From Latrodectus hesperus (taxonomy: Eukaryota; Arthropoda; Arachnida; Araneae; Theridiidae), in the NCBI GenBank assembly GCA_037975125.1, contig CM075857.1, forward strand, positions 90,773,199 to 90,837,198: a stretch of 64,000 nt of DNA. Reading direction: 5' to 3'. A program made the position numbers and the translations under genes. Under the pieces are notes generated by a model. That model ran no database searches. It was not told the DNA's origin and was given only the letters and a program-made list of their open reading frames with translations. Shown piece by piece: positions 31,922 through 59,122 of this stretch; the stretch's first letter is position 1; every line of letters starts with the position of its first letter.

Positions 31922-32504
31922 ACAGTTTTAAAGAACATCGATTAAATAAACAAATTACTTAATTAGTAATTTATTCTGGTTTCATGTATTAAAATAATTT
32001 GTTTGACAAATAGTTTTTACTGTCTTTACTGGTATAGAAACATTATATTAAATTCAATTTTTAAATTTCGATTATTTTTCTTAACAGAACATTAACTTGT
32101 TCACTACTTGCATAGTTTAAGTACTTTTGTTGACAATACAATAACTTGTTCATAATCTTATAAATGCTAACATTCATTTTTTAAAAACATTTTTCCTTTC
32201 ATGTCTCATGGTGTGAGATTTCTGGCTACCGCAGAACCTTCCTAGATCGGCTGTGAAATGAAATCTCGGTAAGTGAGGTAACAACCTTTTATTGTTTTTG
32301 GAATCTAATCTGATTCAACATTTAAATAGGCATATTGTCAATTTGTTATATTCTCTGTCTTCTGAGAATTCTTAAATTTTTCCTTAAATATAAAAAAGAA
32401 TTCAATAATAATCATGCAATTATAAGCATTATAAGCTCTTTATAAAAAATATTTAATTTACATATAAATTTAATATTTTTTTCTGATTAAAATCGATTGT
32501 CTAT

Positions 32505-33544
32505 GGTCAATATCCATTGAATTCCTCTGAAGGTTTGCCCTGTTTTATGAATCGGAGCAATTATAGCTTTCTTTCAAATTGCTGGTACATTAGAGTTCCA
32601 GCTTCTGTTGATCAGCCTTAAAAGCACTGAATGACCATTTGGCCCTAATTTCTTAATAAATTCTTAATGAAAACAGTCTGTGTCGGGGCTCTTTCCCTTT
32701 TTAAGGTATTTTATAGAGTATTCAAGTTCAAATTTAGTAAAGTCGTCACTAAACACCAACTGCTGTTGACCAAGACCAGTGACAGCCTTATGAATGTTAT
32801 TTTTCAATGCCATTTTATCTCTCCTGGAATCTTGTCCGAGTCTCTGTGATTCAGAATAAAACGTAATAAAAGCATTTGGAACGCCTTTATCACTGGTTAA
32901 AACATCCCTAAAGGAAGCGCTAGTAGTTTATGGAAAAACAGCCCTTAGTTAAATACTTAATGTTAACATACTTAAAAACTTTCTTGAAACGTGCAATATT
33001 TTACGAATGCCAAAAACATGTTCTCCTCAACGTTTGGATTTTACATCAAACCTATCAATGTCATCGATTTATTACGTGGAATAGGTGTGATATATTCAAA
33101 ACCATACGTACATGAATTGGTTGAAATCAAATTAGAAAAAAAAACAGCAATTTAACTATTTAAAATCTTATTTTAAAAAATAGCAGGAAATATTAAAAGC
33201 AATATCGTAAGTTATAGCAATTCCAAATATTACTCTCCATTATCAAAACAGAATAAAAATTTGTTTTAATTTTGAAGCTATCCTCTGGGAATCCTCTTTT
33301 TAGCAACTTTGTGGATTGTCTCACAGAACCTCTTAACGAAGCATCAATGCTCCCAGTGTGGAAAATGTTATCTTTAAAACTGTGTTTCAGGTCTGCAGTA
33401 AATGCATTCATGTTTGCTTTTTTAAAATTCCATCTGCTTTATAGTCTGTCATTCTTGGCATTTCTTTTTTGTGGAGTATTTTCTTGAATAGTAGTAATAT
33501 AATCCCCCTGTGTCCTGAGCCAGGATCGTAAATTACGTTTCATA
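32505..33544 (-). pseudogene. LINE-A (Jockey-like), linker and start of reverse transcriptase
   Basis: On the minus strand the segment resumes the LINE interrupted by the LTR element. The end of the endonuclease region (DPGSGH, about 33510) is followed by the linker (WNFKKAN, about 33420, and FTADLKHSF) and the first RT motifs (KYLKKGKSP, about 32705, and LINRSWNSNVP then IIAPIHKTG, about 32555). These read in order but in several frames, with stops. The RT catalytic core and 3' end are missing, and recognisable similarity stops near 32505. The upstream half is at 42750-43390. Confidence 0.75.
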
Positions 33545-33551
33545 CGGTAAA

Positions 33552-33848
33552 TGTGATGCAACGAACCTATCGTCTTTAGGATAGTCCAATAATACATAAT
33601 GCCTTCATTTCAGACGACATATTTATTTCACATTAACATGCACAAACATAAATTTAGACGTTTACTTTCACATTATTCAAAGACATATATTTTTCATCGT
33701 CCGGGAGCGGGGTCCCGCTCCCACGTACTCACAACCACTCCGTTCCACTCGCTCCGACACGACTCCGTCTATATGTCTCTTGTGTCTCCCCCATCGGCCG
33801 ACAACGAAATCGAAAGTTTTCGTTTCCGTTTGGTGCTTGATTTTCACA
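33552..33848 (-). repeat. 3' LTR of Gypsy-A
   Basis: Similar over its whole length to 42462-42749, with shared blocks such as CGAACC, CAATAATAC, AAATTTAGACG, CGACACGACTCCGTCTATATG and GTGCTTGATTTTCACA. A purine tract (AAGGAAGG on the minus strand) lies just upstream, as expected for a polypurine tract. Confidence 0.85.
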
Positions 33849-34297
33849 CCTTCCTTACAGTTTCCCTTGCTGGACCTTGTCCTGCAAATGAAAACTACGA
33901 AGAACCTTAGAATGTTTCTTTTACCTTTCATCACCATTCCATCAAGAGCCAAATAATAACAAAATTCTAAAGATGACTTAATGCTTAAACTATTTGCTGA
34001 CATGCTTCAGCTTACACTTTTTCTTTTATTATTTTGTTTAATTGGAAACCATCCTATACTACTGCTATATCAATTATATTTATTACAAATAATATTATAA
34101 TGTTAAAAAATAAGAATCAATATGAACATTGAAAAACAATTATGCAAATATTATTCAAACAAACCTTATGGAAATTAACAACCCCAAAAGATAAATATAA
34201 GTAACTACATTATATTATATAACGTTAAATATAAATATTATGATATATGAAAATTTATTTTCTATTCCTTACTAGATTCATAATGACAAAAAATTAA

Positions 34298-35591
34298 TTA
34301 ATCATCCTCATAAACCCTTGATAAGGCATCAACGATAACATTATTACCAAGCTTATGAGCTGTTGTGACCTGATAGCCAGAGAGAGAGAGCCAATGACCA
34401 TCTCTGTAAACTGTCATTCTTCGGGATGCTTTCCGTAAGATATTTCAGAAAATTGTGATCTGTGAATAAATTTATGGAAGTTCCGTAAATCCAGGCTTCA
34501 AATTTACGCCCATATCACAGCATATGCTTCTCTCTCGATGGTACTCCATTTAATCTGCGCTGGAGTTAATTTCTGACTGGGGAAGGTTATAGGCTTAGGA
34601 TTTCCATCTGTGTCTCTCTGCATTAAACATGCTCCAATGCCAGTAACCTAAGCATCTGTGTGGAGTTCAAATTGCTTATTTAAATCAGGGGTTGACAATG
34701 AAGTGACAACACATAAACTATCTTTCAATGAGATGAAAGCCTTTTCTGAACAGACCAAGGGATATCATTTGGTACAGATTTTCTGGTCAAGTCTGTTAAA
34801 GGCTTAGCAATGTTCGCATAATGAGGCACACATTCCCTATAATAGTTAAACAGTCCTAATATCGATCTTAAGGTTTTCTTTGTTCTTGGCGACTTTAAAT
34901 TTTTGATTGCTGTAATTTTATCCGGATCGGGCCCATGTTCTCCTGATCCAACTAAATGACCTAAATATTTTACATTTGATCGAGCAAGGGTACATTTTGC
35001 TAAATTTGCTGTAAAATTGTACTGTTTCAAAGTTTCCAACACCGCTCTTAGATGATTTTAATGTTCATCCCAACTAGATGAATAAATTATGATATCATCT
35101 AGGAAACTTTCGACAAAACCATTATGGGGTCTTAAGATCTGATTCATAATTTTCTGAAAAGTAGCTGGACCACCCGCAAGTCCAAAAAGGGGCATTTATT
35201 TCCATTCATACTGTCCCTTAGTTGAAACGAAACTTGTTAGTTCTCGACCATCTTCTTCCTATGGAATATCCCATTAACCTTAAGGATGTCCAGAGTCGAT
35301 AGATACTTTGCCGCACCAGCTTTGAAACGTTATTCTTTTGAATTTTGCATTGGAAATGGAGCTATTTTAGACTCAGAATTTAGTCCCAGATAGTCGATAT
35401 ATAATCGAATCGTTCCATCTTTCTTTGCGACACATACAAGTGGATAAACTATCTCTGCAGAAGATGGTTCTATCAAATCCTTGTTTAATAGTTCTTTTAT
35501 TTGATTTTCCACCTGAAGTTTTAAGGATTCTAGTATTCGGTATATATGAAGCTGTTTCCTTTCAATTCAAGTTTTCAATGTTATTTTATGA
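34298..35591 (-). pseudogene. Gypsy-A reverse transcriptase and RNase H
   Basis: Minus-strand fragments carry the RT entry motif (KELLNKDLIEPS and KKDGTIRLYIDY, 35390-35500), an FLDD active-site box (35094-35105) where YxDD is usual, and the tail GHLVGSGEHGPDPDK / LGLFNYYRECVPHYA (34725-35042). RNase H follows (KLTPAQIKWSTIERE, about 34540; DALSRVYEDD, then stop at 34298-34300). RT copies RNA to DNA and RNase H removes the template. Frameshifts and stops break it into several frames. Nothing integrase-like follows the RNase H stop; only about 450 bp of UTR leads to the LTR. Confidence 0.85.
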
Positions 35592-35595
35592 GGTT

Positions 35596-35898
35596 TGTAG
35601 CGTACCGAGGTGGCAAGGCAATTCAAGAGAATTTCAATTAATTTAATTTAATTTATTGATAAGGATAAATTTTAAATATACCTAATTTTTACTATTTACA
35701 TAAATTTTAATACCACTTTCAACTTAATAATCCTGACAATGTCACTGGCGGACGCTGCCACAAGCGCACCTCCAGTGCGATGTCTCTCTGAGAATACACT
35801 CTACTAAAGTAAACAAAAAATATATAATCGGAAGGGAGGAGGGCGGCAGAATCTCGCGTGCATGCGCTATACTGATTCTCGCCTTTTAGCTCGTTACA
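35596..35898 (-). mobile_element. Solo LTR of a different retroelement
   Basis: A 303-bp segment starting TGTA and ending TACA on the plus strand is flanked by a 4-bp duplication GGTT (35592-35595 and 35899-35902). On the minus strand it has a TATATA-type box and an AATAAA signal in the right order for an LTR. Removing it and one GGTT restores an open reading frame from Gypsy-A integrase into RT, which confirms it is an insertion. A solo LTR is what remains after recombination between the two LTRs of a full element. Confidence 0.8.
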
Positions 35899-35913
35899 GG
35901 TTGTACCTTAGGT

Positions 35914-36679
35914 CAGCGGTTCTTAACTTATGGGTCGCGAAGCATATTTCTTGGGTCGCGCTGAGTCGAACCAAAAAAGTTAGTAATACACACCCCAAAT
36001 ACTAAGTAATACCAACACCTCCTAGAAGAGTTACAAAACACTACAAAAACACTGAATCTTTATGTGCTTTCTGGTTAAAATTAAAAACCGAAAAGCCAAT
36101 AATTGTTAAAGAAGCCCTAAAAGTATTATTGCCCTTTTCAACAACATATATGTGTGAGGCTGGTTTTTCGGCTCTGTGTGTAATCAAAAACTATTACCGG
36201 AACGAGTTAAATCCTGAAATAGATATAAGGTGCTCCTTGACTAGCATTCAACTGAGGTTTAAAGATCTTTCAAAATGTATTCAAGCACAAGGTTCTCATT
36301 AAAACTGTATGTGACTTGCATTTAAAATTTAAAAGACTTAACATATGTATTGATATTTCTTTTTTTTTAGGAATAAGTTAAAATGTCAATTATTTTCAAA
36401 AAGTTATTAATATATTTTAATTTGGTCAATAAAAATTATTAAAAACACTTGATTATTAATTAAATTTTTCTTGTATCGAAAAGTACTTTTGTTTATCTTT
36501 ATTATTAAAAAAATAAATAAAAAATTTGTAAGTTAAAAAAAATCATCATCGTAGGATTGAAGATTTTTTAAAAAAACGATCTAAAATAAATCAATGAAAA
36601 AATTTTGACTTTTTTTGGGTCGCGACATGAACATATTTCTCAAATTTGGGTCGCTGCTTAAAAAGGTTAAGAACCACTG
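35914..36679 (+). mobile_element. 766-bp hAT deletion derivative
   Basis: Terminal repeats CAGCGGTTCTTAAC and (reverse complement of the right end) CAGTGGTTCTTAAC are flanked by an exact 8-bp duplication CCTTAGGT (35906-35913 and 36680-36687), the hAT hallmark. The interior keeps only the 3' part of a hAT transposase on the plus strand (FSTTYMCEAGFSAL, about 36130-36180, and the tail to about 36300). It nearly matches the corresponding parts of the 2.65-kb hAT at 47907-50560. The first two-thirds of the gene are deleted, so it could only move with a transposase supplied by another copy. Confidence 0.92.
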
Positions 36680-36687
36680 CCTTAGGT

Positions 36688-37860
36688 CGCTTCCAGTATT
36701 CCTGTATTTCTCCTCGGCCTCCTAGAGGTATAGATTGAACCTCCTCAAAATCTTCATCAGCTTCATAAATTATGCCCACCGTATTCATCGACTGGATATA
36801 TTTCCTTAGCTTATTCTGATGCAGTTGATGGATGCTTTCATCCGGTAATTTAACTGCATAAGAGTGGAGATTTCTGTTGGACCTTTCCACCCTTGGATCT
36901 TTCCACCTAGATCAAAGTTTGTTTGTAGAGTCTGGAATTAGTACAATAACTTCATCTTCAATAGATAATTCTTTTGTTTGGATCTTAAATTATGATAATG
37001 TACATATTTTTTCTGTTGATTTTTAGTATATTCATCGGCGTATTCCACAGCTATCTGCAACCTATTTCGAACCTTCTGAAGATAATCAGTAATTGATTCA
37101 CCAATACCTTGAGGCAGAACAATTTCATCTTCCCATATAGATTTCAAAATAGCTAAAGGTCCAACTGGGGGGGGGGCGTCCATTAACTAATAAGTATGGT
37201 GAGACCCCAGTAGTAGCGTTTGACACTTCACGATATGCCCACAAGAGAAAAGGCAACTGTTTGTCCCATCCACTACACAGCGACCTTATAGCATTGACTT
37301 CATTGTGCCAATCCATCTTTTTATCAATTCGTTACTCTGTGGGTAACCTGGTGTAGAGAATTTTGGTACAGTCCCTATTCTTTTAGAAATTTTCGCGTTA
37401 ACTTGACAGCAAAATTTGTTCCATTGCTCATAGCAATGATTCGAGGAATGCCAGACCTCATAAAAATTTCCATAAATACATCGCACGTCGCTTTTGCAGT
37501 CAAAGATTTATTAGGAATTGCTTCTGACCACCGACTGTGCTGATCCATAACACACAATACATACTGGTGTCCCCTTTTTGTTCTACCAACAGCTTCTATA
37601 GGTCCTCTGTCTTTCAGTTTGGTTTTACTCCGCAATAGACAATCGTGACAAGATTCACACCACTTGGTATACCTTCCCACCAAAAAGACATTACCATTCT
37701 TTCCTTGGTTTCGCTAGAGGCAAGATGTCCTCCTGTTGGTTCTTCGTGAGCTAATTTTAATATTTTTTTCTTCTGCATTCTGAAACTACAAGGTGAACAT
37801 ATTTCTGTTCTTCCACATTGCCTGTGTGGTACTGTAAATCTGATTCCAGTCAATAATTGT
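36688..37860 (-). pseudogene. Gypsy-A integrase
   Basis: Order on the minus strand: the H..H part of the zinc-binding domain (LAHEEPTGGH, about 37750), its C..C part (CESCHDC, about 37645), the core (VLCVMDQHSRWSEAIPNKS, about 37550; SGIPRIIAMSNGTNF, about 37430; TPGYPQSNELIKRWIGT, about 37320), and the C-terminal region with VSPYLLVNGR (about 37200) and KLRKYIQSMNTVGI (about 36800). Residues expected to be catalytic are altered: Ser replaces Asp before NGTNF, Lys replaces Glu before RWIGT, and the first Asp region is missing. The enzyme is dead. The frame would run on into RT once the two insertions at its 3' end are ignored. Confidence 0.87.
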
Positions 37861-38067
37861 TCTTACGCTATCTGGCATCCTCCAAACACCGATTTAATGC
37901 AGCACAGGACAAATGTTCATTTCTTAATATCTTAACTTGCAAAATTGGACTATTATTTTCTTCATCTCTAACAGCAATTATTTCTTCGTTTAACAAGTTA
38001 CTTTTTACTGGAGTAGTTGAAACCTCTACTTCAGAATTTTTAAAATCAAGTGTTTTTTTATTAGCTT

Positions 38068-38440
38068 CTATATTTCCTTGTGAGCTTCTATTTTCCTTTT
38101 CTCCACATTGAAAGCATTCGAAACTATTTCTTTCCCGTGGATATTTTTTATTTCTGCTCCAAGATATTTTCTTCTTTGTTTTTTCAACAAACTGAAAACT
38201 CTAAGAGTGATCAAAGCTTTCTCATACAATCCATCCATAATCTCAGCATGCACCATGATATACGGCCTGATATCATCATCTGCTGACTAAATAGAACAGA
38301 AACCAGCATTCCTTCCACAGGAGATCCAATTGCATGCGTCAAGTAAATTTTCGTACTTGATCGCACTTTTCGCAACATTTCTTCGGGTACCACTGACTTC
38401 CGCAGTACTGTAATTTCCGCACCACTATCAATTCATTGAA
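38068..38440 (-). pseudogene. Gypsy-A aspartic protease
   Basis: The active-site motif DSGAE is encoded at 38415-38429 and followed by ITVLRKSVVPEEML, IYLTHAIGSPVEG and a segment with LYEKALITL. This matches a retroelement protease that would cut the polyprotein. Frames change within the domain, so it is inactive. It lies between gag and integrase, as expected for a Gypsy-A pol that starts with protease. Confidence 0.75.
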
Positions 38441-38579
38441 ACTTATTATCGCCTATATTTAAATCGACTCGAAAAAGCTCACCATCCTTTTCATTGATTG
38501 GAATTTCCCAATAGAAACTTGCATTATCTTGCAAAAATTCTTCAAACGACTTCTTGACATTTGTAACACTTTAATACCT

Positions 38580-39027
38580 TTTTACCTGGAGCGCAACTAG
38601 CAGTATTACTTCCGAAATGATTTTGTTTTTGTAGATCTGTGTTCTTTTGATAATTATAATATTCTTTCTTTTCGCAATAACTCTAATTTCTAGCTTCAGC
38701 TGGAAAATGTTTCCTTATAATTTTGTTCTGCTTTATTCCATGTGGGGCTGGAATAAATTTGGTATAATTATGGGAATTGTGAAACTTTTGGTATCAAAAC
38801 CAAGAAATTATCATTTTCTCACACCAATTCAGGGACTGGAAGCCAATTTTCAATCTTTTTCAAAAATATTTGAGATCTTACATGTGTAGGCAAAGTCTCT
38901 TTTATTTTGTCAGGTACAATAAGCTCTTTAAGTTTAGCAAATGCCTCTACGTCTCTTGATTTTAAATAAAGTTTTAATGTAGCTTCCACCCAGGTAGCAT
39001 ATTGAGCATAACTTTTATCATGTAATT
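38580..39027 (-). pseudogene. Gypsy-A gag, 3' part
   Basis: The minus strand reads KSYAQYATWVEATLKLYL and then KELIVPDKIKETLPTHVRS (about 38880-39010), a helical capsid-like segment typical of gag. It continues the gag cut by the Tc1 insertion. A CYKCQ near 38560 may be the remnant of a zinc knuckle. Stops occur in all frames. Confidence 0.6.
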
Positions 39028-39029
39028 CA

Positions 39030-40585
39030 CAGTGGATAAAAAAGTATTGGCATTTGCCTATAAATGATCATATTTGCTAACAAAGTATGTTTACAAATTT
39101 TATTTTAACAAAGCCGTTACAGAAGGAGAAAAGACAAATAAATGTAACGAAATTTTCATTTAAATATTTTTTTAGTGAAAATCTACGAGAAAATCCCAAA
39201 TTTACATGATAAAAAAACTATTGCAAAAATTATGAGCGAAAACAAAATCAGTATATGTTTAGTAATTTATATGCATACCTTCTGCATCTATAACAGCTTG
39301 TAATCTATTTCTCAGGGGAAACTAAGGTCTCTGTTGTACTATTGGGAATTTTGTGCCACTCTTTCAAGAGTAAACGTTTGAGGTCGTCTTTACTTGAAAT
39401 TTTATGTTTCCTGATTTCTAGATCCAGCACAGATGCCATAAATTTTCAATTCGATTGATTTCAAGCAATTGAGGTGGGGTTTTTAACTGGCGAGGAGCAT
39501 TGTAGAGTAGCCATTCATGGGTGAGATTCGCTGTATGCTTGGAATCATTGTCTTGTTGACAAACGAATGATATTCCCAAGTCAAGATTTTGGGCACTAAT
39601 TTTTAAGTTACGGTGCAAAATGTCAATGTATGTACGAGTTGTCATAATACCATCCATAAAATACAGGTTTCCAACTCCATTAGCTGCCATACAGCCCCAA
39701 ACTAAGACGCTGCCTCCACCATGTTTTACTGTAGCAGTTAAATGTTGTTCTTCCAATTCAGTATATTTGGCCTCCACCACACATATCGTCGTCCATCACT
39801 GCTGAAAATGTTGATTCGTCGGAAAAAATAACTGTGTTCCAAAACTCTTCAGATAAATCAACGTAGGATTTTGCGAAATCTAACCGTCTTTTTCCTATTT
39901 ACTTCCGAGATGAATGGTTTCTATCTTGCTGCCCTTCCATAATAAATTTCCATAGAGTGTAAAACATTTCGTACAGTCTGTACACTGAAAGTGTTTTGCG
40001 AAGTGGAAGTGACATTTCTAGCTATCTGCGGTGCACTTATTTTAGGGTTTTTCTTAACCTTTATTCTCTTGGAGAAAATATTCGAGGTCGCCCACTTTTA
40101 GTCTTATTTTCCGTTGATCCTGTTTCCTTTGCAACACTTCTGACAATTAATAAACTTATATTCAACTGCACTCCTATAGTACGATAAGTTAAACCTTCAT
40201 TTCTGAGCCCAATAATTGTGTTTTTAACACTAACGTCCAACTCCTTCGATTTCGAAGTCATTCTACTGCAGTAATCGCAAAATAATGCATAGACACTTTT
40301 GGAGTGGTTTTGCAAACTTTATACCTGTAGAATTTCCTATCAGTCGAAACACAATGTAATAAAATTTGCATAGCATTTAAACCTTTGCAAGTACTTTTTT
40401 GACATGCAAATTTTCGTTTTTGAAAGAAAAAATCGTAGAAAATGCAAATTAAAATAAAAATTTTTACCTTTTTTATTTATCTAAGATGTCTTGTATTTAA
40501 TTACGACAGCTAAAATTGCATAACATTTTATTTATTTGTCAATATGATTAAATTAATGCAATTCCCAATACTTTTTTACCCACTG
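39030..40585 (-). mobile_element. Tc1-A transposon nested in Gypsy-A gag
   Basis: The ends are inverted repeats starting CAGTGGATAAAAAAGTATTG at the left and, read in reverse complement, CAGTGGGTAAAAAAGTATTG at the right. The right flank is TA; the left is CA, a likely mutation of the TA target. At 1556 bp it has full Tc1 size. Confidence 0.9.
39259..40261 (-). pseudogene. Tc1-A transposase
   Basis: The N-terminal helix-turn-helix begins with MTSKSKELDVSVKN (start codon at 40259-40261) and contains LTYRTIGVQLNIS and a GRPR hook motif (about 40080). The catalytic core has FSDEST (about 39810), CQQDNDSKHTA (about 39545) and IENLW (about 39440), matching the D, D34E pattern; the usual SPDLNP before IENLW is degraded. 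It ends NY-stop at 39259-39261. At least one frameshift and several stops make it inactive. The enzyme would cut and paste the element at TA sites. Confidence 0.88.
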
Positions 40586-40587
40586 TA

Positions 40588-41165
40588 TAACAAGAATCAA
40601 AATTCTTTGTGTTGTAAATGAGTTATTCTATACTCCCTTAAAATGAAATTTTTGATTTTGACATACTAAATCTCTTCTTCAGACAGCATAACGTTTATTT
40701 ATTTGTCACGACCCTTTAAACACTGTAAAATGATTTGCCCTTCCAACTGTTCGGGTACTTTATAAAACTTGAACATCCTTTCTGCATGATGGAAAAAGAA
40801 AGGCCATTCTTCTGCTTGTTCTGGGAGATCTAAAATTTCCCCTTTAATTATATTCAAATAACCTAGAAATGTGTTTCCTAATTTATCTCGCCCATATTCA
40901 ACAGTGCTTTCTGTATTGCTCTCATCTTCCCCCTTTCTTTTAGTTCTAATTCACCCATTATAATTTCATGCTCACGTTGCCTTTCTGCAGTTTGGCTCTC
41001 TCTCCCTCCCTAAATTATAGTATTTATTAATTCTCGAACTATAATGACTCTTCATAATGTTTAGATTGTGTAATCACACATTTATTAAATGTTATCATTT
41101 TTGCGTCCGGAGGAATCTGTTCTCCTAACTCACTAGCCAATATTAACAGATCCTCCTTTCAAGAA
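40588..41165 (-). pseudogene. Gypsy-A gag, 5' part
   Basis: Minus-strand segments read EDLLILASELGEQIPPDAK (about 41080-41140) and, further on, EQAEEWPFFFHHAERMFK (about 40800) with FYKVPEQLEGQIILQCLKG (about 40720-40770). The first resembles the N-terminal helix of gag proteins common in spider gypsy elements, the second a capsid core. Frameshifts separate them. The 1.3 kb from here to the 5' LTR is AT-rich leader without recognisable coding sequence. Confidence 0.65.
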
Positions 41166-42461
41166 TGCAAAGGCGATTTTAACAGTTTATGTTATCACTA
41201 ATTACCAAATATTAATTTATCAATTATTAAAAATAAAACATTTAAGATCACACAAATCACCATTCATTTGTTAAATAAATAAAAACACTCGTTTTCTTAT
41301 GGCACCAAAAAAAGACTTAAATAATTTATTCAAATACTAAATTGAAAAATTTATAGTTTCATTTTCCATTTATACACGCTATTGAACTTCAATTATATAA
41401 TGCACATTAATGAATCAAAACAAGAACAAAATCCAAATTAAATAAATACTTATCACAGAAGAGATCATTAAGCATAACAACTTATGCAACAAACATAATA
41501 ACAATAAAATGTTAAAATAATTTTTAGTAATATGCATTTATGTTCATCACTATTTGTATATTATTTTATCTTAAAATAACATGAATCAGAGCTATCGAAA
41601 CAACCAAAAAAATATATTATTCACCATTGCAAGCACAAATACTTTCGAAATATAAAATAATTCAAAATTTCTCCTCTTAAAAATGTTTCACACTTTCGGT
41701 TTTGAATCAAAATTTAAAATCTAAACTTAGTTACTTTACATAAATATTAAATACAATCATAATAAATAATTAATATACCTTATAACATTGACTAATTTTG
41801 AACACATTATTTAATAATGCAAAACAATAAACAATTAAAAGGCATTTAAACTCTCTTGAAATAGTTTCTTATTCCATAAACTTATATCATTTACCTAATA
41901 AGCTACAGAATGATCATGAAAATTCTAAGCATAAGCATTTATATCCTATTATATCACATTAAACCAAAAATACGTTTCATCAATTTACTATTCAATAATA
42001 CAGCAGCTTTTAAATTAATGCACATAACCCAAGAAATGACAATAAACAACATTATTGTTCGACATTAAGTTGTTTTAATGAACAAAGTCCAAAAATATTT
42101 TTTTCATACTAAATCAAAATTATATATTTTTCTAATAATATCACCAGTTAGAGAAAAAAACTTTTCTGAATATTAATGAACAAATATCAATAACCAATAA
42201 TATTTTGAAATCAATATCGAACCTTAAATATTTCTCAATTAAATTAAACATTGTACAAAATTTTATTACATTTCTTAAGCAAAACCCTACAAAGAAATTT
42301 AAGAAAATTCTGAAACACACACACACAAGAATTCCCTTAAATCATACATAATTAAATATTGGCTTTTAATGGAATGAGAAGCAATCAAAATATACAGACT
42401 CTTTACTTTGTAAACCCTTTTCTGTTACAAGTATCCCATCATTTTGTATTAGTCCTGGATA

Positions 42462-42749
42462 TGTGATGTTGTCACGAACCTGCGTCTTCAGGGTGGTTCA
42501 ATAATACTAAATACTTTCTTTCGGACAATACATTTATTTCACATTAAAATGCACAAACATTAATTATTAACACAAACATAAATTTAGACGATTCTTTCCA
42601 CACTATTCAAAGACATATAACCGGGAGCGGGACTTCCGCTGCCACTCGTATTCACAACCACCCCGTTCCTCTAGCTGCGACACGACTCCGTCTATATGCC
42701 GACCACGGAATCGAAAGCTCTCGTTTCCGTTAGGTGCTTGATTTTCACA
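42462..42749 (-). repeat. 5' LTR of Gypsy-A
   Basis: The partner of 33552-33848. It differs by many substitutions and small indels, including loss of a segment near 42700, so the insertion is not recent. No clear tRNA primer-binding site follows it. Confidence 0.85.
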
Positions 42750-43390
42750 CGGTATTAGAAACAAGATCGTCCGAAACTGCAGTAAGATCAGGATTCGTAA
42801 AGGTACCGTTGTAATGGAGGTAGGTGGGAACATTGGATGGATGATATAGGAAGATTTAAAGAAGTCGAGTTGAAAAGATCTTCTATTACTCTACCTGCAT
42901 AGTTCCATCTGAAGCTATGGGCATTAAAATCTTCCATTAGCATAGTTTTTTGGGAGAAAAAGCGAGTGTCAAAATTTAATTTTGTGTTTCCAGGTGGGCT
43001 GTAGCACATGAAAATTTTATACTAGACATTATCTTTCCAAACTTCAGTGCAAACCATCTCAGTGCCACTGGCAGAGTTTAAATCACTAATAATAGACAAG
43101 GAAGAAACAAGAGTTTTCTTTAGCTCAACGAGAATACCACTGACGACTCGTCTTGATTTAGGTAAAAATGTAAAGAATACCCAGGGAAATTGTAGAGTTT
43201 CATGAATTCCAAAGTCAAATTAACTTCAACATTAGAAAATACGTGAACATCCTCCTTATCAAGAACAGTTAGGAGCTGAGTTCTTTTTTTCATGTGAGAA
43301 GCCGCCTGCATTCCACTGATGCAGTCTCAAAACTTTATTCATCTTACAAAAAAAAAAAATATCTAGAGATACAAGGAAGGAGGCAAGGCC
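42750..43390 (-). pseudogene. LINE-A (Jockey-like), endonuclease domain
   Basis: The minus strand opens with LHQWNAGG (about 43310), the usual start of an apurinic-type LINE endonuclease. It continues with MKLYNFPGYSLHF (about 43180), GTEMVCTEVWKDN (about 43040), CYSPPGN, MEDFNAHSFRWNYAGR (the catalytic DFNAH motif, about 42920) and TNPDLTAVSDDL (about 42780). The first stretches are shifted in frame. The endonuclease nicks the target for reverse transcription. The gene continues at 33544 after the LTR element. Confidence 0.82.
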
Positions 43391-43830
43391 GTAGCAGATT
43401 TACTGTTAACCAGGGTGTGTAGTCTACTCAGCCATGTACCTCTTTTGGAATAACATGGAATTAAGCCTAACATTTCTTCATGATACTTGATTTTTTCCAA
43501 GTGGAGTCACCATTGCTGCCTGCCCTACGACCTCTGTCCACCTAACCAAGAATCTTTTTGTCGAGCGTAACAAAATTTTTACACAATCTTGCAATTTGCA
43601 AGTGGAGTTACATAAGCTATTTACATTGTTAGTACACATTACATTCTTAGTTGCAACTTTCTTCTATATACAATTATAAATTTTATTGCCTAGTTACTAT
43701 CTTCTTCCAATTACAAAAATAAGTTTTCTGGGTAACCGTACAATTAATAATAAAATTTTTTACATAAATGGGTTTGCACCCCCAGTTGAGAATAATTCAC
43801 ATGATGCTGTTTGACAGAAAATACTTTTAT
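43391..43830. other. Unassigned segment between the two LINEs
   Basis: Mostly non-coding and less AT-rich than its surroundings in its first half. It could be upstream LINE-A sequence or the 3' UTR of LINE-B. No frame or terminal repeat was recognised. Confidence 0.4.
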
Positions 43831-44415: not shown

Positions 44416-44576
44416 TACGAGGGTTACTCTGAAATTGTTGAGATACGCGCAGACGAGAATTTACAAAATAAAAATAATGGTTTAATTTTAAAGTACAAAG
44501 TATTTTAACGCAGATGATTTTTTACTGACTTACTTCAACTTGTTTAGCGTGAAATAAATTTTAAGCAGAAAAGAAA

Positions 44577-45460
44577 ATGGAGTTGACGCGAGAACATTTT
44601 CGCACTATGATTTTCTACGATTTCAAAGAAGGATTAAATCAAGAAGAATGCGTTCAACGGTTGCAATTAGCATTGGGTGATGAATCTCCAGCTCGTGCTA
44701 TTGTATTCAGATGGCTTAGAGAATTTAGAAGAGGTCGCAATTTTCTTCAGGATGAAGAACACACAGAAAGACCGCCGTCGGCTGTAATCCCGGATAATGT
44801 GTCTGCCATACGAAAAATGTTAATGGATGATCATCGCTGTACCTATCAAATGATACAGAAGGAACTTAACATTAGATCCGCAGCCATATACAAAATCATT
44901 CATGAAGAATTACTTATAAAAAAAGTAGTTTGCCGCTGGGTTACCCATAATCTAACTGAGCATCAAAAAGAGGAGCGTGTCAGAATCAGTAAAGAAACTC
45001 TTAATAGGCTGAAGGATAGTGGCCACCGCACCATTTCTCAAATTGTAACAGGTGATGAAACGTACATACCGTTTTTTGACGTTCCAACACGTCAAGAAAG
45101 CAAAGTATGGGTCTTTGAAGATGATCCCATGCCGACAATGGTGAAAAAACAACACGCACTGAAAAAAGTGATGTATGCCGTTTTCTTCAGAAGTACGGGA
45201 TTGGTCAAAACCATCAAGTTGGAAGGACAGAAGACAGTAACAGCAAACTAGTATACCACTAAATGTCTTCCAGAAATTCTACAAGATTTGAATGTTAGGG
45301 GACTAATGCTTCACCAAGACAATGCATCTTCACATATAGCCGGATTAACAGTTGAGTTTCTTAAACAAAAACAAATTAAAGTGATCGAACATCCGCCATA
45401 TTCACCTGATCTAGCTATGTGCGACTTTTGGTTACTCTTTAATCTAAAAAAGAACTGATG
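44577..45460 (+). pseudogene. Mariner transposase, one nonsense codon and a frameshift
   Basis: It starts MELTREHFRTMIFYDF. The first 225 codons are open and hold the helix-turn-helix region and the first catalytic Asp (VTGDETY, about 45050). A TAG at 45249-45251 interrupts it. The same frame continues with LHQDNASSH (second Asp, about 45320) and HPPYSPDLAMCDFW (third Asp, about 45400), the D, D34D pattern of mariner. A frameshift near 45455 moves the tail (RRRDDVAINEFFRLFEEM) to another frame. It is probably a fairly young, recently disabled copy. Confidence 0.92.
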
Positions 45461-46021: not shown

Positions 46022-47430
46022 CAGTACTGGCCATTAAAATTGCTACACCATGAAGGCGGCACACCACACACGTGAAATTTGCATGACAGGTAGAACTTGC
46101 TGTGATATGCAAATGATTAGATTTTCAGCGCATTCATACAAAGCAGGCGACAGTAGCGACATCTACAAAGTGTATAAAACCAGAGATTTGACAACAGTTT
46201 TCTCATACTCAATTTCCGTTTCAACGTTGTTTTCGGCAAAGAAAGTTGTTCTAATGCTTCGTGTAAGAAGAAGAAATGCCTATCAGCACCTGTCTGACTT
46301 TGATCAAGGAAGGATTATAGCCTACCGGGATTGCGATTGCGGTTTATAGTACCGCAATATTGCTGCTCGCGTAGGTTGACACCCCATGACTGTTAGCAGA
46401 ATATGGAATCAATGGGTTCAGGACAATCATACGGAACGTCATGCAGGATATCAGCGACCCCCACCGTCACTAACAGCAGAGAAGACAGCCATCCGCAAGG
46501 TCACAAGGGATCGTACAGCCACGTCACGAACCCTGAGTCGAGAAATGGAGTCATTTGCAAGGCATCAAGTTTCTCCTCGAACAGTTCTACGACGTTTGCA
46601 GCAGCACGGATTGTCTGCATGGCGACCATGGCTTCGGCTACCATTGACGCTGCGTCACAGACAGGAGCACCTTCAATGGTGTGATCAGCGACGAACCTAG
46701 ACGCGGGAATGGCATCACGTAATCTTTACAGATGAATCTCGGTTCTGTATACAGGACCATGATGGCCGCATCCGTGTTTGGAGACATCGTGGAGAACGTG
46801 CATTGCCAGCTTGCATTAGACATCGCCATACTGGCCCATCTGCTGGAGTGATGGTATGGGGTACTATTGGATACACGTCTCGATTACCTCTTGTTCGCAT
46901 TACCGACACTTTGAACAGCAACCGTTACATTTCCGATATGTTAAGGCCCGTGGCTCTGCCCTATCTTCGAGGCCTCCCTAATGCTTTGTTTCAACAGGAT
47001 AATGCACGACCGCATGTTGCCCGTACGGTTCTAAACTTTATTGATACAGAACATGTTCGACTGTTACCCTGGCCAGCACGTTCTCCAGATCTGTCACCAA
47101 TTGAGAACGTGTGGTCAATGGTTACCGAGCGATTAGCACGCCATCACTCACCATCCACTACTGTCGATGAACTGTGGCATAGTGTTGAAGCTGCATGGAC
47201 TGAGATCCCCGTACATGCCATGCAATCTCTGTTTGACTCCATGCCTAGGCGGATAAATACTGTTATTGCAGCCAGAGGTGGCTGCTCTGGGTACTGATTT
47301 CTCAAGATCTATACATCCTAATTTCGTGTAAATCTAATCACTTGTTCTTTTCACTATAATGTATGTGGCCAATAAATATCGTTCTGTTATTTGCATTCTT
47401 TCTTGGTGTAGCAATTTTAATGGCCAGTAG
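46022..47430 (+). mobile_element. Tc1-B transposon nested in LINE-B
   Basis: Inverted repeats share TACTGGCCATTAAAATTGCT and then ACACCA, with TA on both sides (46020-46021 and 47431-47432). The length is 1409 bp. Related fragments of this family lie at about 4855-4965 and 59895-60105. Confidence 0.95.
46254..47297 (+). pseudogene. Tc1-B transposase with three nonsense codons
   Basis: A single frame of 348 codons runs from MLRVRRRNAYQHLSDF to the stop at 47295-47297, interrupted only by TAG (46347-46349), TGA (46377-46379) and TAG (46698-46700), with no frameshift. It holds two helix-turn-helix segments, FTDESRF (first Asp, about 46735), FQQDNARPH (second Asp, about 47000) and SPDLSPIENVW (Glu, about 47110), the D, D34E pattern. 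Its GC content is clearly higher than the surrounding DNA. The length matches an intact Tc1 transposase, so the copy is young but inactive. Confidence 0.95.
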
Positions 47431-48288: not shown

Positions 48289-50090
48289 TTAATGAGAACC
48301 TTGTGTTTGAATACATTTTGAAAGATCTTTAAACCTCAGTTGAATGCTAGTCAAGGAGCACCTTATATCTATTTCAGGATTTAACTCGTTCCGGTAATAG
48401 TTTTTGATTACACACAGAGCCGAAAAACCAGCCTCACATATATATGTTGTTGAAAAGGGCAATAATACTTTCAGGGCTTCTTTAACAATTATTGGCTTTT
48501 CGGTTTTTAATTTTAACCAGAAAGCACATAAAAATTCAGTGTTTTTGTAGAAATAGTATCGAAGTGCTTGGTCACTTTGTATTTCTATTAATTGTTCTTG
48601 AAATTGATTAATATTAACAAATTCCTCATGCAAATCACTTACATCAAAATTAAATGGCATTCGAACCCAATTATATTTGAAAACATCGTCTGCAGGGAAA
48701 TATCGATCAAAGTCTGCTATTAATTTTTCTAAATGATTAATAATAATTTTCTGTATTTCAAAATCTGTGAAACCAATATTATTGTCTTCAACAAGTGAAT
48801 TAAGAGTCGGGAATGAAGCAAGTTTCTTTACTTCAACCTTATTTCTCCATAATTTGAGTTTATTTTTAAAACGTAATTTTTTCAGTTAATTCAATAATAC
48901 TATGATTACGTCCTTGCATAGACGTATTTAGATTATTTATTTCAAATAAAATATCTGACAAATAAGCAACTTGAGTAATCCACTTCAACTTGGAGAATTT
49001 AGATGCTAATGGGTGTTTCTTTTCTCTCAAAAAAATTCGACTTCTGTCCGCAATGATAATACTCTTTGAACAACTTTGCCCCGGGACAGCCATCTAACTT
49101 CAGTATATTATAATAAATGTTCGTATTCTGCACCAAATTCGAAACACAGTTCGCGGAAAATTCTACAGGTAAGAGCTCTTGATTTGATAAAATTGACTAC
49201 CGCAACAATTTCATCCAAAACGATACATAATTCGGGTGATAATTTTTTTGAAGCAAGATTTTGTCTATGTAACAAACAATGAATCGATATAATTTGTGGA
49301 TTCATTTGTTTTGCTCTTGTTGAAAATCCCTTTTGAGATGCTGTCATGGCAGCTGCACCGTCGGTGCAAATACTGGAACACTGATTCCAATTTAAGCCTT
49401 CTTCTTTAAAAAACGAATCGACCATAAGAAAAATATCTTCACCTCTAGTTGTTGTTGACATTGGTTTGCAAAATAAAATGTCCTTCCTGTATATCTGTTA
49501 AACCTGGATACCGCACGTAAACCATGAGTTGAGCATCTTTACTTACATCTGTCGTTTCATCCAGTTGAATACTAAATAAACCAGCAATTTTTATAGCAGA
49601 AATAAGTTGATTCTTAATATCAAATGACATATCATTAATTCATAAACGAATTGTATTATTTGATATGGTATCTTTTGTAATTTCTTTGAACTTTCATCTC
49701 CGCACATGATACGTGCCATGTCAATGGCAGCAGATTTTATAAGTTTTTCAGCAATATTATGGGGTTTCTTTTGTCTTGCAATACGCCAAGCCACATAAAA
49801 AGAAGCAAGTGTAGCTTGTTTGTCAGAATTTATAAAATCATTACTACTTGGTCATCCAAACGCTGTCTTTTTAAATGGGCTTCTTTTCTTTCGAAAAAAG
49901 TACGATCTTTTCCCTCAATGGAAAAATTTTTATGTTTTGAATCAAAATGTCTTTTAAGTTTGTTCGGTTTCATCGATTCATTACTTAATATTTCACTGCA
50001 CAACACGCATTGCGGCTTGTTCACTCCTCGATCATAAATGCAAGTAAAACCTAATTCTAAAAATGCTTCCTTGTATTCACGTTTTGCCAT
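48289..50090 (-). pseudogene. hAT transposase with N-terminal BED finger
   Basis: It starts MAKREYKEAFLELGF at 50090. A BED zinc finger follows (C..C in PQCVLCSE, H...H in LKRHFDSKH, 49930-50040). The core has QLDETTDVS (first Asp, about 49555), CTDGAAAMT (second Asp, about 49350) and CEAGFSAL (Glu, about 48430), the latter in the C-terminal dimerisation region ending about 48289. It is broken by frameshifts near 49830, 49620, 49450, 49100 and 48860. The closest domesticated relatives by family knowledge are ZBED5/FAM200-type proteins. The enzyme would move both this element and its short derivative. Confidence 0.9.
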
Positions 50091-53430: not shown

Positions 53431-54500
53431 CAGCACATTTTAAGTTACATCGGGCCAAGGCTTCATGATACTCAGCACAAGTACTGGTAATCAGGGGACC
53501 TTCGGTGAAACCAATTTTTTGAACATCGTAGGTGTCATTGCTCTCAACTTTTATTATTTTGTATATATAGGGGCCTAAATATTTGGGTTTTAACTTGAGA
53601 CCTGGACCTTGTTGTATATGTTTAATAGCAACAGTATCATTTAATTTGAATTTTCTTGCTTGTTTTCTCCTTAAATTATAGGTTTTGCGATTTTCATTTT
53701 GAACTTTTAAAATTTGTTTTTTAGCTTCTTTTCAAAGGTTATCGCGATTATTAATGAAATCTATTCGCATTTCTGCGTCTAAGAGATCTTTAATTTTAAC
53801 ATAAATTTTTTGTTTCATTTTTGTACCAAACAACAATTCAAATGGTGTTGTGTTAATACTTCTGTGAAAAGTTGAGTTTATAACCTGTTGTACATTACTA
53901 ACATGCAAATACCATTTAGCCTGGTTATCTATCGACAGTTTAGACAGAACAGAAATTATACTGGAATTAAGGCGCTCTACTTGACCATTAGCTCTAGGTA
54001 AACCGGTGGTTACACAAATATGTTTAATTTCTTCACGGCGACAACATTCTTCGAAATCATTTGAAGTAAATGCAGAACCTTTATCCGAAATGATGCAAGA
54101 GGGGTTACCGAAAACAGTCTTTTGGAGTTTTAACTTCGAAATTACTTCAGAAACGTCAATAGATTTAGTTGGGTAAAGCCAAATAAATTTGGTAAAACTA
54201 TTGATCACAGCAAATATCTATTTATCTCTTATGAGTACTTTCTTATGGACCTAAGTGATCTACATGATATGTGTGTAAAGGAGTGTCGTCTTTCTCAATT
54301 GGATGTAATTCTCCTTGTTTACCTCTTTTTCGATTGCTTAAAATACACGGTATACAATTAGATATACATCTCTCGATTTTTTGTTTAACTTGAGGAATGT
54401 AAAAGTTAGAATTTAAACTATCTTCTGTTCTTTAACTGTTCTTTCTCGTGTGCAGATTTAATTATACTCATTTGCATTTCGTCTGGAATTACTAACAGTT
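53430..54500 (-). pseudogene. Gypsy-B integrase
   Basis: The minus strand reads HVDHLGP (first Asp, about 54265), INSFTKFIWLYPTKS (about 54180), CIISDKGSAFTS (second Asp, about 54090) and LPRANGQVERLNSS (Glu, about 53990): a D, D35E core with all three residues present. The C-terminal part has KARKFKLNDTVAIKHI-like and LKPKYLGPYIYKI segments (53560-53670). The open frame 53732-54208 covers most of the core. Frameshifts lie upstream and near 53730. Integrase would insert the DNA copy into the genome. Confidence 0.85.
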
Positions 54501-54795
54501 CATTACCATTAACATATTTATAAAGAACATCGTTTTTGAGTAAATTTTGAGTAAATAATCATCATGAGGTTTTTGTTTTAATATCTCTTTAATTGTTTTG
54601 ATATGTTCGTCTGTGTTTTGTGCTTGAATTATTTTTAGTGTTAAACTATCTTGAGCTATCATACAAATTGAATTTCTGCTTAAAGCATCAACATGTCACA
54701 TACTAGAACCTTTTCTGTGTTCTATTGTGTAGTCAAAATCACTTAGCATTAGAGCCCATCTAGCAATTTTGTGCATAAATCTTTTTTGTTCATTG

Positions 54796-55674
54796 TCATA
54801 GCAAAAAAGCATTACAGTCAGTAACTATTTTAAAAGGAATTCCCAACACATAGACCCTAAATTTTTTTAAAGCTTCTATGACAGCCATTACTTCTAATTC
54901 GTAACTAGAATATTTTCGCTCAGCTTCTGTTGTTTTCTTACTCATGTAGTAAACAGGGTGGAACTGATTATCTACAAGGGACTTTTGAATAAGGGTGGCA
55001 CCATAACCATCAATGCTGGCATCACAATGAATTTCGGTTTCACTTTGAGGGTTAAAAATTGTAAGAACGGGTTCCGTGGATAAAATGTATTTCAATTGGT
55101 TGAAGGAATTTCTTTCATTTTCACCAAATTTAAATTTAGACTCTTTCTTCAATAAATCATTTAAAGGTTTAGCAATAATAGAATAATTTTTAATAAACTT
55201 TCCAAAGTAACCAGTCAATCCTAAAAAGCACTGAACGTCTTTTGTTGTTTTTGGTTCGGGAAACTTAATTACAGCTTTCGTTTTATTTGTTGACGGGTGT
55301 AATTTACCATTTATTATTTTATAGCCTAAAAATTCTATTTCACGTTTCAAAAATTTACTTTTCTTTAAGTTCAATTCCAGTCCATATTCCGACGCAGTTT
55401 GCAGGACAAGTTTAAGTTTTCTAACACCTTCGGTTTCGTTTTCGGCAGGAATAATTACGTCATCCATATAAATCACTACAACACTGTCTTTTAATAATTG
55501 TCTAAACACATTATTAATGTATTTCTGAAAAATACTTGGAGAATTAGTTAATCCAAATGGGCACTTCAAAAACTCATACTGACCATCGTGTGTAACGAAT
55601 GAAGTGTATTTTTGGGAACTTTCTTCAACGTCAACATGGAAGAAGCCATTTCGTAAATCCAAAGTTGTGAACAC
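54796..55674 (-). pseudogene. Gypsy-B reverse transcriptase and RNase H (293-codon open stretch)
   Basis: The longest convincing open frame in the window (292 residues). It runs from the RT palm (LDLRNGFFHVDVEE) through the active site VVIYMDDVII (about 55470), LGYKIINGKLHP, and the connection LGLTGYFGKFIKNYS, to RNase H with HCDASIDGYG (Asp), YELEVMAV (Glu) and VTDCNA (Asp). It belongs to a polyprotein: the sequence upstream in other frames continues the palm, so the ATG is not a true start. A stop ends it at the RNase H C-terminus. Confidence 0.92.
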
Positions 55675-56420
55675 TGCAGAAGAATGTAATTTATCTATTA
55701 CGTCATCACAATAACTGGCAAAGGGAAATGTTCACGAACCGTTTTCTTACTATAATCAGTACAAAGTCTCTCTATGGGTATTATCTTTTTTTCTTAACTA
55801 ATTACTACAGGTGAAGAGAAATCAGAAGAGCTATTACGAATTGTTCCCTTAGCTAACCATTCTTCAATTTGAGCTTCAACTATTTTTTTCTCAAAAGGTG
55901 GTAGTCGTCGGGGGGATGAACAAATAGGGATTTCATTAGTTAAATTAATTTTCATCTTAACATCAACATTTTTAATTTTACTAGGAACATAATTTTTTAT
56001 TAATGAATGTATTTCAGAACACAATGATTTATTTTTAATGTGATTTAGATCGATTTCCAATTCATCGTTAAGATTTACAAAATTAATTAAGAAATTATCT
56101 ATTTCGTTCTTGTTAGTGTGAAACGATACTTCATTGGTTGAAACTATTAAAGTATCTTGATTAATAATGTCAGTTCCTACAATTAAATCAAAACTTACAC
56201 AGTCATCATTTATAACAAAAATATTTCTATTACTTTTGAATTATCAATTTCAATTTCTGCATCAAAATAACCTAGTGGTTTAATTGATTTCCTTCCTAAA
56301 CCAGTCAACGAAATATTAGAAGACTGTAAACTTATGGGGTCTTTAATTTTATTAAATAAACTGTTTTTCAAAATCGTTTTCTGACTTCCAGTAACAATTA
56401 ATTTTAATTTAATTTCCACT
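55675..56420 (-). pseudogene. Gypsy-B protease tail and RT N-terminus
   Basis: The minus strand carries protease C-terminal residues FDLIVGTDIINQ (about 56180) and then RT entry motifs RRLPPFEKKIVEAQIEEWL (about 55890) and IRNSSSDFSSPVVIS (about 55800). The catalytic protease triad is not present because the element is truncated. A frameshift near 55795 separates this from the open stretch at 54796-55674. Confidence 0.78.
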
Positions 56421-58254: not shown

Positions 58255-59122
58255 TTTGGTCTACCGGAAAGTTCTGTCTGCTCCGGTTACAATCAGTTTC
58301 AACAAGTATTCAGCTCAACAAACCATTTCCGACCATATTCGGAGACTAGGGTTTGTGTGGAAGTATTCGAGATGGGTGCCACACAAGTTAAGTGAGAAGA
58401 ATTTGAATGATTGAATCATCATATGCACATCTCTGCTTGCACGCAACAAAATCGAACCCTTCTTGGACGGGATCATAACTGGGGATGAAAAGTGGATTAC
58501 CTATGAAAACATCATAAGAAAAAGGGCATATTGTGAACCCGGAAAACCTACCCCCTCTACCTCTAAACCGAAGTTGAGCCTGAACAAGAGAATGTTGTGT
58601 ATAGGGTGGGACATTCAAGGACCAATACATTTTGAGTTGTTGAAACCAAACGAAAGGCTAAATTTGGAGAGGTACTGTCAGCAATTGGATAAATTAAAAA
58701 CAGCACTCGAAGAAAAGAGGCCGGCGATGTTCAATAGGAAGGACATCATACTGCTTCATGACAATGCCAGGCCACATGCTTCTTTGGGTACTCGTCAGAA
58801 AGTCGCAGAGCTAGGCTGGGAAATTCTGTCGCATCCTCCATACGCCCCGGACCTAGCACCATCTGATTATCACTTGTTTCTGTCCTTACAAAATTTCTTG
58901 CAGGGCAAACAGATCAAGAACGAAGAAGATATCACTGGTTCAATTTTTGGCCTCTAGAGATAAGACATTTTTTTAAAATGGGATATACAAATTGCCATCA
59001 CGCTGGCAAGAAGTCATAAATAATGATGGCAATTATATTTTTCAATAAAGTTTATCCAAAGTATGAAAAAATGTATTCTTTTGTTTCATTCTAAAACGGA
59101 CAGAACTTTCCGGTTGACCTAA
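58255..59122 (+). mobile_element. Mariner with N-terminal deletion
   Basis: Inverted repeats TTTGGTCTACCGGAAAGTTC and (reverse complement) TTAGGTCAACCGGAAAGTTC, flanked by TA (58253-58254 and 59123-59124). At 868 bp it is about 400 bp shorter than a full mariner. The deletion removes the region between the left repeat and the middle of the transposase. The fragment at 12390-12488 belongs to the same family. Confidence 0.93.
58330..59010 (+). pseudogene. Mariner transposase, catalytic half
   Basis: KYSRWVPHKLSEKN (about 58360, another frame) leads into the open frame 58463-58957, with IITGDEKWITYEN (first Asp), LHDNARPHASL (second Asp, about 58755) and HPPYAPDLAPSDYH (third Asp, about 58840), the D, D34D pattern. 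The N-terminal helix-turn-helix is deleted, and the C-terminal tail after about 58945 is frameshifted. It could not bind its ends unaided. Confidence 0.92.

What the first reader, a model, noticed from the sequence alone, without database searches (positions are those of the whole stretch)
33552..42749. A gypsy-type LTR element with integrase before reverse transcriptase
Seen: on the minus strand the order is gag, protease (DSGAE), integrase, RT, RNase H, then a stop and about 450 bp of UTR before the LTR. After removing the solo LTR and the hAT derivative with one copy of each target duplication, the frame continues from the integrase C-terminus into RT apart from one stop, so the order is original and not a rearrangement. 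Known: Ty3/gypsy elements normally have RT, RNase H, integrase; the Gmr1-type elements described from deuterostomes are a gypsy lineage with copia-like order. Inference: this is a Gmr1-like or independently rearranged lineage in an arthropod.
Basis: partly seen in the sequence, partly recalled or inferred. Interest (0 to 1): 0.75.

Follow-up and report, generated by a model that had tools for sequence, protein, structure and literature searches.

The report
Old spider retrotransposon, integrase before RT
This is a decayed copy of a retrovirus-like jumping element, probably from a spider, whose DNA-inserting enzyme is encoded before its copying enzyme instead of after it; it belongs to or beside a known animal lineage with that swapped order, so it widens the known range rather than being a new kind of element.

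Summary
On the minus strand (LTRs 42749-42462 and 33848-33552) the order is gag, protease, integrase (INT), RT, RNase H. An unbroken relative's frame from the same genome aligns to the window in this order from 41158 to 34301. The order is original: INT pieces lie upstream of RT in 29 of 29 other copies found by the RT piece alone; 15 of 15 fetched copies of two long-frame families have INT before RT in one open frame; the three closest database relatives found by RT alone agree. RT and INT trees put the copy in the same place, inside a spider-tick-scorpion clade. That clade joins other INT-before-RT elements of animals: well supported by INT and by both domains together, weakly by RT alone. 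Its gag resembles their SCAN-bearing gag. So it is Gmr1-like, or the arachnid sister lineage of Gmr1. Crustacean and annelid Gmr1-like elements are already reported (PMC3587641, PMC8220671), so arthropod occurrence is not new. The window copy is old (LTR distance 0.148), broken, carries three inserts and was multiplied by segmental duplication.

The parts
42462..42749 (-). 5' LTR, TGTGAAAA...CATCACA, 288 bp
   Evidence: same LTR start (TGTGAAAA) and ...TCACA end in family A copies
42750..42754 (-). probable target site duplication TACCG at the 5' side; at the 3' side TACCG lies two bases beyond the LTR end
   Evidence: 5-bp duplications in four relatives (GGGCC, ATCAT, TATGT, ATACA)
42441..42461 (-). 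place of the primer binding site; relatives have TGGCGC... here (read as a primer site from recall), the window copy has lost it
38551..41158 (-). gag, frame-broken and split by a Tc1-like insert
   Evidence: tblastn with family A open frame; pieces 80-84% identical to family A
39030..40585 (-). Tc1-like DNA transposon inserted in gag (TA target), present at the same place in L046, L048, L049, L050
38286..38525 (-). aspartic protease region (IDSGAE)
   Evidence: Pfam RVP only 0.11 in the window piece
37286..37862 (-). integrase zinc-binding (H2C2) and core; the region of the first catalytic Asp is deleted and the second Asp is Ser (catalytic roles recalled), so this copy's integrase is dead
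   Evidence: Pfam Integrase_H2C2 2e-07, rve 2.8e-06 below cut-off; alignment
36687..37186 (-). integrase C-terminal part
   Evidence: tblastn
35914..36679 (-). non-autonomous hAT derivative, 8-bp duplication ACCTAAGG; empty site in L046
35596..35898 (-). solo LTR of another element (TGTAACG...GCTACA), duplication AACC; empty sites in L047-L050
34752..35566 (-). reverse transcriptase (FLDDI present, stops and frame changes)
   Evidence: tblastn 79-86% to family A; Pfam RVT_1 2.9e-04, below cut-off
34301..34749 (-). RNase H, ending at a stop
   Evidence: tblastn 73-91% to family A
33849..34300 (-). 3' untranslated region of about 450 bp, with a purine-rich tract before the LTR (AACTGTAAGGAAGG)
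33552..33848 (-). 3' LTR, 297 bp

Best explanation
The stretch is one old, broken insertion of a Ty3/gypsy-type LTR retrotransposon of the Gmr1 kind: a single gag-pol frame in which the integrase is translated before RT and RNase H. Unbroken members would work as other LTR elements do: gag particle, protease cleavage of the polyprotein, tRNA-primed reverse transcription, and integration with a 5-bp target duplication. The swapped order changes only where the protease must cut to free INT and RT; it is inherited through the lineage and was not made at this locus. Shown: order, single frame in relatives, LTRs, target duplications, shared placement of RT and INT, gag likeness. Inferred: cleavage sites, primer use, recent activity of families A and B (from LTR distance), and a single origin of the order together with Gmr1.
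For: Collinear alignment of one unbroken frame to the window. INT upstream of RT in 29 of 29 other RT-selected copies; in one open frame in 15 of 15 copies of families A and B that I chose for fetching because their frames were long, and pieces in order in 5 of 5 older copies (L047 lacks the first gag piece). The three closest RT-selected database relatives, 71-76% identical, have H2C2-rve before RVT_1-RNase H. Natural empty sites for both inserts. Same placement in RT and INT trees. 31 INT-before-RT rows split from 5 canonical rows at 99/98 in the joint tree; holding the arachnid rows with the same genome's canonical elements is rejected jointly (p 0.005) and by INT (p 0.023) (groups were named after the tree was seen). 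Gag profile match 3.6e-36, controls 0.03 and 0.085. Canonical elements in the window and genome come out as RT before INT, so the method can see that order. Best PDB match of the relatives' profile is Ty3 Gag-Pol.
Against: RT alone supports the split of INT-before-RT from canonical rows only at 82/77, and the AU test on RT does not reject the rival (p 0.092). With two long canonical rows left out, the joint split falls to 82/77. By the RT piece alone a Chara protein (9e-20, two RT domains) scored above the INT-before-RT protein P0007 (1.8e-13). Only five canonical rows were at hand and no named Gmr1 sequence. The Pfam SCAN model reaches 0.0067 in P0003, below its cut-off, matches 3 of 9 arachnid proteins at E up to 1, and does not match the two window gag pieces. 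The SCAN-bearing gags also match plant gypsy gags weakly (1.8e-04), so some likeness is general to gypsy gags. The 120 listed relatives came from a profile that itself has INT before RT, so their shared order is not independent evidence.
Confidence: 0.85

Rival explanations
1. The INT-before-RT order arose independently in an arachnid Ty3/gypsy lineage, for instance by template switching between two packaged RNAs, and is convergent with Gmr1.
For: Long branch to the arachnid clade (0.82 in the joint tree) which stands beside, not inside, the 14 other INT-before-RT rows (97/93; 70/26 with two canonical rows left out); RT support for the whole group only 82/77 and the RT AU test not significant; SCAN weakly or not detected by Pfam in arachnid gags.
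Against: INT tree 97/95, joint tree 99/98, AU p 0.005 and 0.016 jointly and 0.023 by INT; gag profile match 3.6e-36 with controls 0.03 and 0.085; INT-to-RT linker of similar length in 121 proteins, median 153 residues, range 94-191.
Confidence: 0.12
2. Two nested or adjacent elements: an RT-bearing element and a separate integrase-bearing element placed side by side by insertion.
For: Three insertions lie inside the element, two of them exactly between INT and RT.
Against: Copies without these inserts have INT running straight to RT; 15 of 15 fetched copies of families A and B have both in one open frame; RT and INT have the same nearest kin.
Confidence: 0.01
3. A Ty1/copia element, whose normal order is INT before RT.
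For: Domain order alone.
Against: RT, RNase H and INT of the relatives match Ty3-type models: best PDB match Ty3 Gag-Pol; Pfam RVT_1, RT_RNaseH and Integrase_H2C2, with no copia-type RT model listed at E up to 0.001.
Confidence: 0.01

Closest known systems
Gmr1-like Ty3/gypsy elements (Goodwin and Poulter 2002, not seen; described in passages of PMC3587641, PMC6238403, PMC8220671)
   Same: Ty3-type RT; integrase upstream of RT; gag of the kind from which the SCAN domain is said to derive (passages of PMC4592553 and PMC3424704)
   Different: The arachnid clade is a separate, long branch beside the mollusc, echinoderm, amphioxus, turtle and sponge rows; SCAN is below Pfam's cut-off in arachnid gags
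Crustacean Gmr1-related elements GyRex4, Gychoro2, GyMaja1, GyLiva4 (PMC3587641, passages)
   Same: Arthropod hosts; placed with Gmr1 by RT/RH
   Different: GyRex4 and GyRex5 are partial and do not overlap, so the order in one molecule was not shown for them; sequences not compared here
Database proteins of spiders, ticks and a scorpion, such as P0005 (Stegodyphus mimosarum), P0016 (Araneus ventricosus), P0027 (Ornithodoros turicata), P0052 (Centruroides vittatus)
   Same: Same order, same clade; P0005 71% identical to the window RT piece
   Different: Long frames; named only 'uncharacterized' or 'transposon 17.6' by their sources
Canonical Ty3/gypsy elements, for example the one at window 55731-53732
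   Same: Ty3-type RT, RNase H and INT
   Different: RT and RNase H before INT

Membership tests
Gmr1-like Ty3/gypsy | Ty3/gypsy-type RT and RNase H | tested here: met
   Ty3 Gag-Pol best PDB match of the relatives' profile; Pfam RVT_1, RT_RNaseH in relatives; window aligns to them
Gmr1-like Ty3/gypsy | Integrase upstream of RT in pol, as an inherited trait | tested here: met
Gmr1-like Ty3/gypsy | INT phylogeny with other INT-before-RT elements | tested here: met
   97/95 split from 4 canonical rows; AU p 0.023 against grouping with the same genome's canonical rows; no named Gmr1 reference in the set
Gmr1-like Ty3/gypsy | RT phylogeny with other INT-before-RT elements | tested here: inconclusive
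   82/77; AU p 0.092
Gmr1-like Ty3/gypsy | Gag capsid with SCAN-like C-terminal part | tested here: inconclusive
   Arachnid and mostly SCAN-bearing gag profiles match at 3.6e-36, but Pfam SCAN is under cut-off, 3 of 9 arachnid proteins at E up to 1, none in the two window pieces
Gmr1-like Ty3/gypsy | Placement next to the named Gmr1 element of cod or the Ciona elements | not tested
   No named reference sequence was at hand; deuterostome rows with the order stood in for them
Ty1/copia | Copia-type RT | tested here: not met
   RT and RNase H of relatives match Ty3-type models

The most novel reading that the evidence does not exclude
Arachnids carry their own anciently separated INT-before-RT Ty3/gypsy lineage whose swapped order arose independently of Gmr1, making pol domain order a repeatedly evolvable trait; the window's host, spiders, ticks and scorpions would be its first described hosts.
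Probability: 0.12. Interest if true: 0.5.

Novelty: new member of a known kind. Interest (0 to 1): 0.33.

Why it matters
It shows, with long single-frame copies and not only RT fragments, that the INT-before-RT arrangement of Gmr1 occurs in spiders, ticks and a scorpion and in families with little LTR divergence, so the trait looks old and animal-wide. Several such proteins carry only labels such as 'uncharacterized' or 'transposon 17.6' in their sources. If the arachnid lineage turned out to be convergent, it would make the evolution of retroelement domain order testable.

Tried and rejected
Three IMG/VR scans (RT piece, canonical RT, profile A1) found no relatives. The bare 110-residue RT piece returned only two short proteins. 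Nested elements and Ty1/copia were considered and rejected (see rivals). The idea that the Tc1-carrying copies were a retrotransposed subfamily was rejected: L046 and L050 share the window's 3' insertion junction and flank, L047 shares its 5' flank, and the 5' flank (43000-43500) has matches at 90-98% on C277, C767, C353, C694, C60, C270 and C1429, five of which (C277, C694, C60, C270, C1429) also hold RT matches about 4-8 kb away on the same strand. L048 (C12) showed no such flank match, so its origin is open. More canonical animal elements for the trees were sought, but the genome search was mostly unanswered. For the trees I chose 25 of the 130 proteins held as INT-before-RT rows, with five loci and the window piece; canonical rows were P0008, P0010, P0013, the window's own element and, from then on, L051; P0009, P0011 and P0012 were left out (INT short or not found). 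In one search the INT C-terminal query was one base out of frame by my slip; corrected (the other INT pieces carry the count). Weak (34%) gag hits downstream of RT in L003, L004 and L047 were not counted as gag. P0006, counted as INT-before-RT by the script, has two RTs and was dropped. My first LTR bounds were wrong and were redone.
Full report
What is there. The window lies in an unnamed 1.64-Gb genome of 2,912 contigs; the nearest named protein relatives are from spiders, so the host is probably a spider (inference). Between 33552 and 42749 on the minus strand lies an LTR element with LTRs 42749-42462 and 33848-33552, K2P distance 0.148 over 263 aligned sites. The target duplication is probably TACCG: it abuts the 5' LTR, but at the 3' side it lies two bases away. 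In four relatives examined by script the flanks are identical 5-mers; another, L031, showed no matching flanks.

Order. In separate window pieces Pfam finds H2C2 (2e-07, above cut-off), rve (2.8e-06) and RVT_1 (2.9e-04), both below cut-off, and protease at only 0.11. The stronger test is tblastn with an unbroken open frame from the same genome (L033, 1,539 residues): residues 19 to 1539 fall on the window in rising order from 41158 to 34301, as gag, PR, INT, RT, RNase H. The same query also hits the canonical element at 55.7-54.7 kb, where RT precedes INT, so the method can see the usual order.

Is the order original? The RT piece alone was searched in the whole genome: 151 matches, 150 of 5,765 first-look candidates scored. 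Of the 30 loci cut out one is the window itself; in the other 29 of 29 at least one INT piece lies upstream of RT on the same strand within the 1.5 kb held, and none was hit downstream. Twenty longer stretches were then fetched, fifteen of them chosen because their frames were long: ten of family A (RT 88-91% identical to the window), each with all nine pieces in order in one open frame of 1,450-1,585 residues; five of family B (RT 53-54%), each with INT before RT in one frame of 1,513-1,519 residues (gag and PR not hit). The other five are the closest old copies: pieces in order, no frame over 250 residues, L047 without the first gag piece. LTR distances were 0.003-0.025 in the four family A copies measured (of ten fetched) and 0-0.016 in five of five family B copies, so these families look young. 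The database search with the RT piece gave 11 proteins at E up to 1e-5; the best three (76, 74, 71% identity; the last from Stegodyphus mimosarum) all have INT before RT. So the arrangement was inherited, not made here.

Inserts. L046 carries the solo LTR but not the hAT; L047-L050 carry neither. A third insert, a Tc1-like element at 40585-39030, splits gag and is present at the same place in L046, L048, L049 and L050. The old copies are largely segmental duplicates: L046 and L050 share the window's 3' junction and flank, and the 5' flank recurs beside RT matches on C277, C694, C60, C270 and C1429. C270 and C1429 also carry the canonical element at a like distance. The window lineage has lost about 105 bp of the INT-RT linker compared with family A (from alignment ends). 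The window copy is dead: many stops and frame changes, the stretch with the first INT catalytic Asp missing, the second Asp replaced by Ser (catalytic roles recalled), primer site lost.

Kinship. A profile of three relatives found 575 proteins at E up to 1e-20 among 7,120 candidates, 120 listed, among them spiders (Araneus, Argiope, Stegodyphus, Trichonephila, Parasteatoda), ticks (Ornithodoros, Amblyomma, Dermacentor, Ixodes), a scorpion (Centruroides), molluscs, echinoderms, amphioxus, turtles and a sponge. Of the 130 proteins held, 122 came out as INT before RT, 4 as RT before INT and 4 without an INT hit; the 120 listed are all INT before RT, but the profile has that order too, so this count is biased. 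Trees of 35 selected rows: by RT the window copy joins family A (100/97), then P0003/P0004, then Stegodyphus, within a 17-row arachnid clade (100/99); by INT the same, 100/98 and 100/100. The 31 INT-before-RT rows stand apart from the canonical rows at 82/77 (RT, 4 canonical), 97/95 (INT, 4 canonical) and 99/98 (joint, 36 rows, 5 canonical). In the joint tree the arachnids are sister to the other 14 rows (97/93). Holding the arachnids with the same genome's canonical rows is rejected jointly (p 0.005; 0.016 with P0010 added) and by INT (0.023), not by RT (0.092); these groups were named after the tree was seen, and long branches are in play. With two long canonical rows left out the 31-row split fell to 82/77 and the 14-row one to 70/26. 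So the union with the other INT-before-RT rows is likely, resting mainly on INT.

Gag. The gags of 9 arachnid proteins and of 9 non-arachnid INT-before-RT proteins, 8 of the latter with a Pfam SCAN match, align at E 3.6e-36 over 222 columns. Controls: arachnid gags against three plant gypsy gags 0.03, against the reversed profile 0.085; the SCAN-bearing gags against the plant gags 1.8e-04. Pfam SCAN itself is weak in arachnids (3 of 9 at E up to 1, best 0.0067) and absent from the two window pieces. Reviews state that the SCAN domain derives from the gag of Gmr1-like elements (PMC4592553 and PMC3424704, passages).

Known or new. PMC3587641 (passages) describes Gmr1-like elements as gypsy elements with INT upstream of RT and reports four crustacean elements as the first in protostomes; PMC8220671 (passages) places an annelid family there; PMC6238403 and PMC2774666 (passages) repeat the trait; PMC8556966 (passages) lists Gmr1 among clades found in several phyla. 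In the held library, searches for Gmr1 with spider (one paper, the crustacean one), with gypsy, arthropod and LTR (five papers) and with gypsy (33 listed, titles and abstract starts seen) showed no title on arachnid Gmr1-like elements; most papers of subscription journals are not held. The finding is a new member of a known kind: real, well supported, and mainly of value for widening the range of Gmr1-like elements to arachnids with full-length evidence.

Noticed in passing
window 53732-55731, minus strand: A canonical Ty3/gypsy element (RT-RNase H then INT) lies about 20 kb away; its RT piece gave 129 matches, 127 of 8,696 candidates scored. Used as control.
   Followed up: partly
window about 32000-43517 and contigs C270, C277, C60, C694, C1429, C767, C353: The region is duplicated at about 90-98% identity on small contigs; C270 and C1429 keep both the Gmr1-like and the canonical element at like spacing. 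Could be duplication or divergent haplotypes.
   Followed up: partly
window 48289-48885 (minus) and 36006-36302 (plus-strand reading of the hAT insert): The ORF at 48289-48885 ends in nearly the same protein sequence as the transposase remnant in the hAT derivative, so a longer relative of that insert lies in the same window (by eye).
   Followed up: no
window 44565-45251, 58415-58957 (mariner-type) and 46701-47297 (Tc1-type): Partly open transposase genes of Tc1/mariner elements.
   Followed up: no
window 42788-43021: The 5' flank of the LTR element looks like a non-LTR retrotransposon (Pfam Exo_endo_phos_2, 1.9e-04, below cut-off), so the element may sit inside one.
   Followed up: partly
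genome contig C1262 near 28713, 35775 and 42837: Three RT matches at an exact 7,062-base spacing on one strand: head-to-tail copies probably sharing LTRs.
   Followed up: no
genome C13 near 71679870 (family B) and C13 near 11486494 (canonical): Unusually long open frames of 2,773 and 2,994 residues around RT matches.
   Followed up: no
P0072, P0081: INT-before-RT proteins filed under Candidatus Thiodiazotropha genomes (a bacterial symbiont of clams, recalled); probably host DNA in the bacterial assembly.
   Followed up: no
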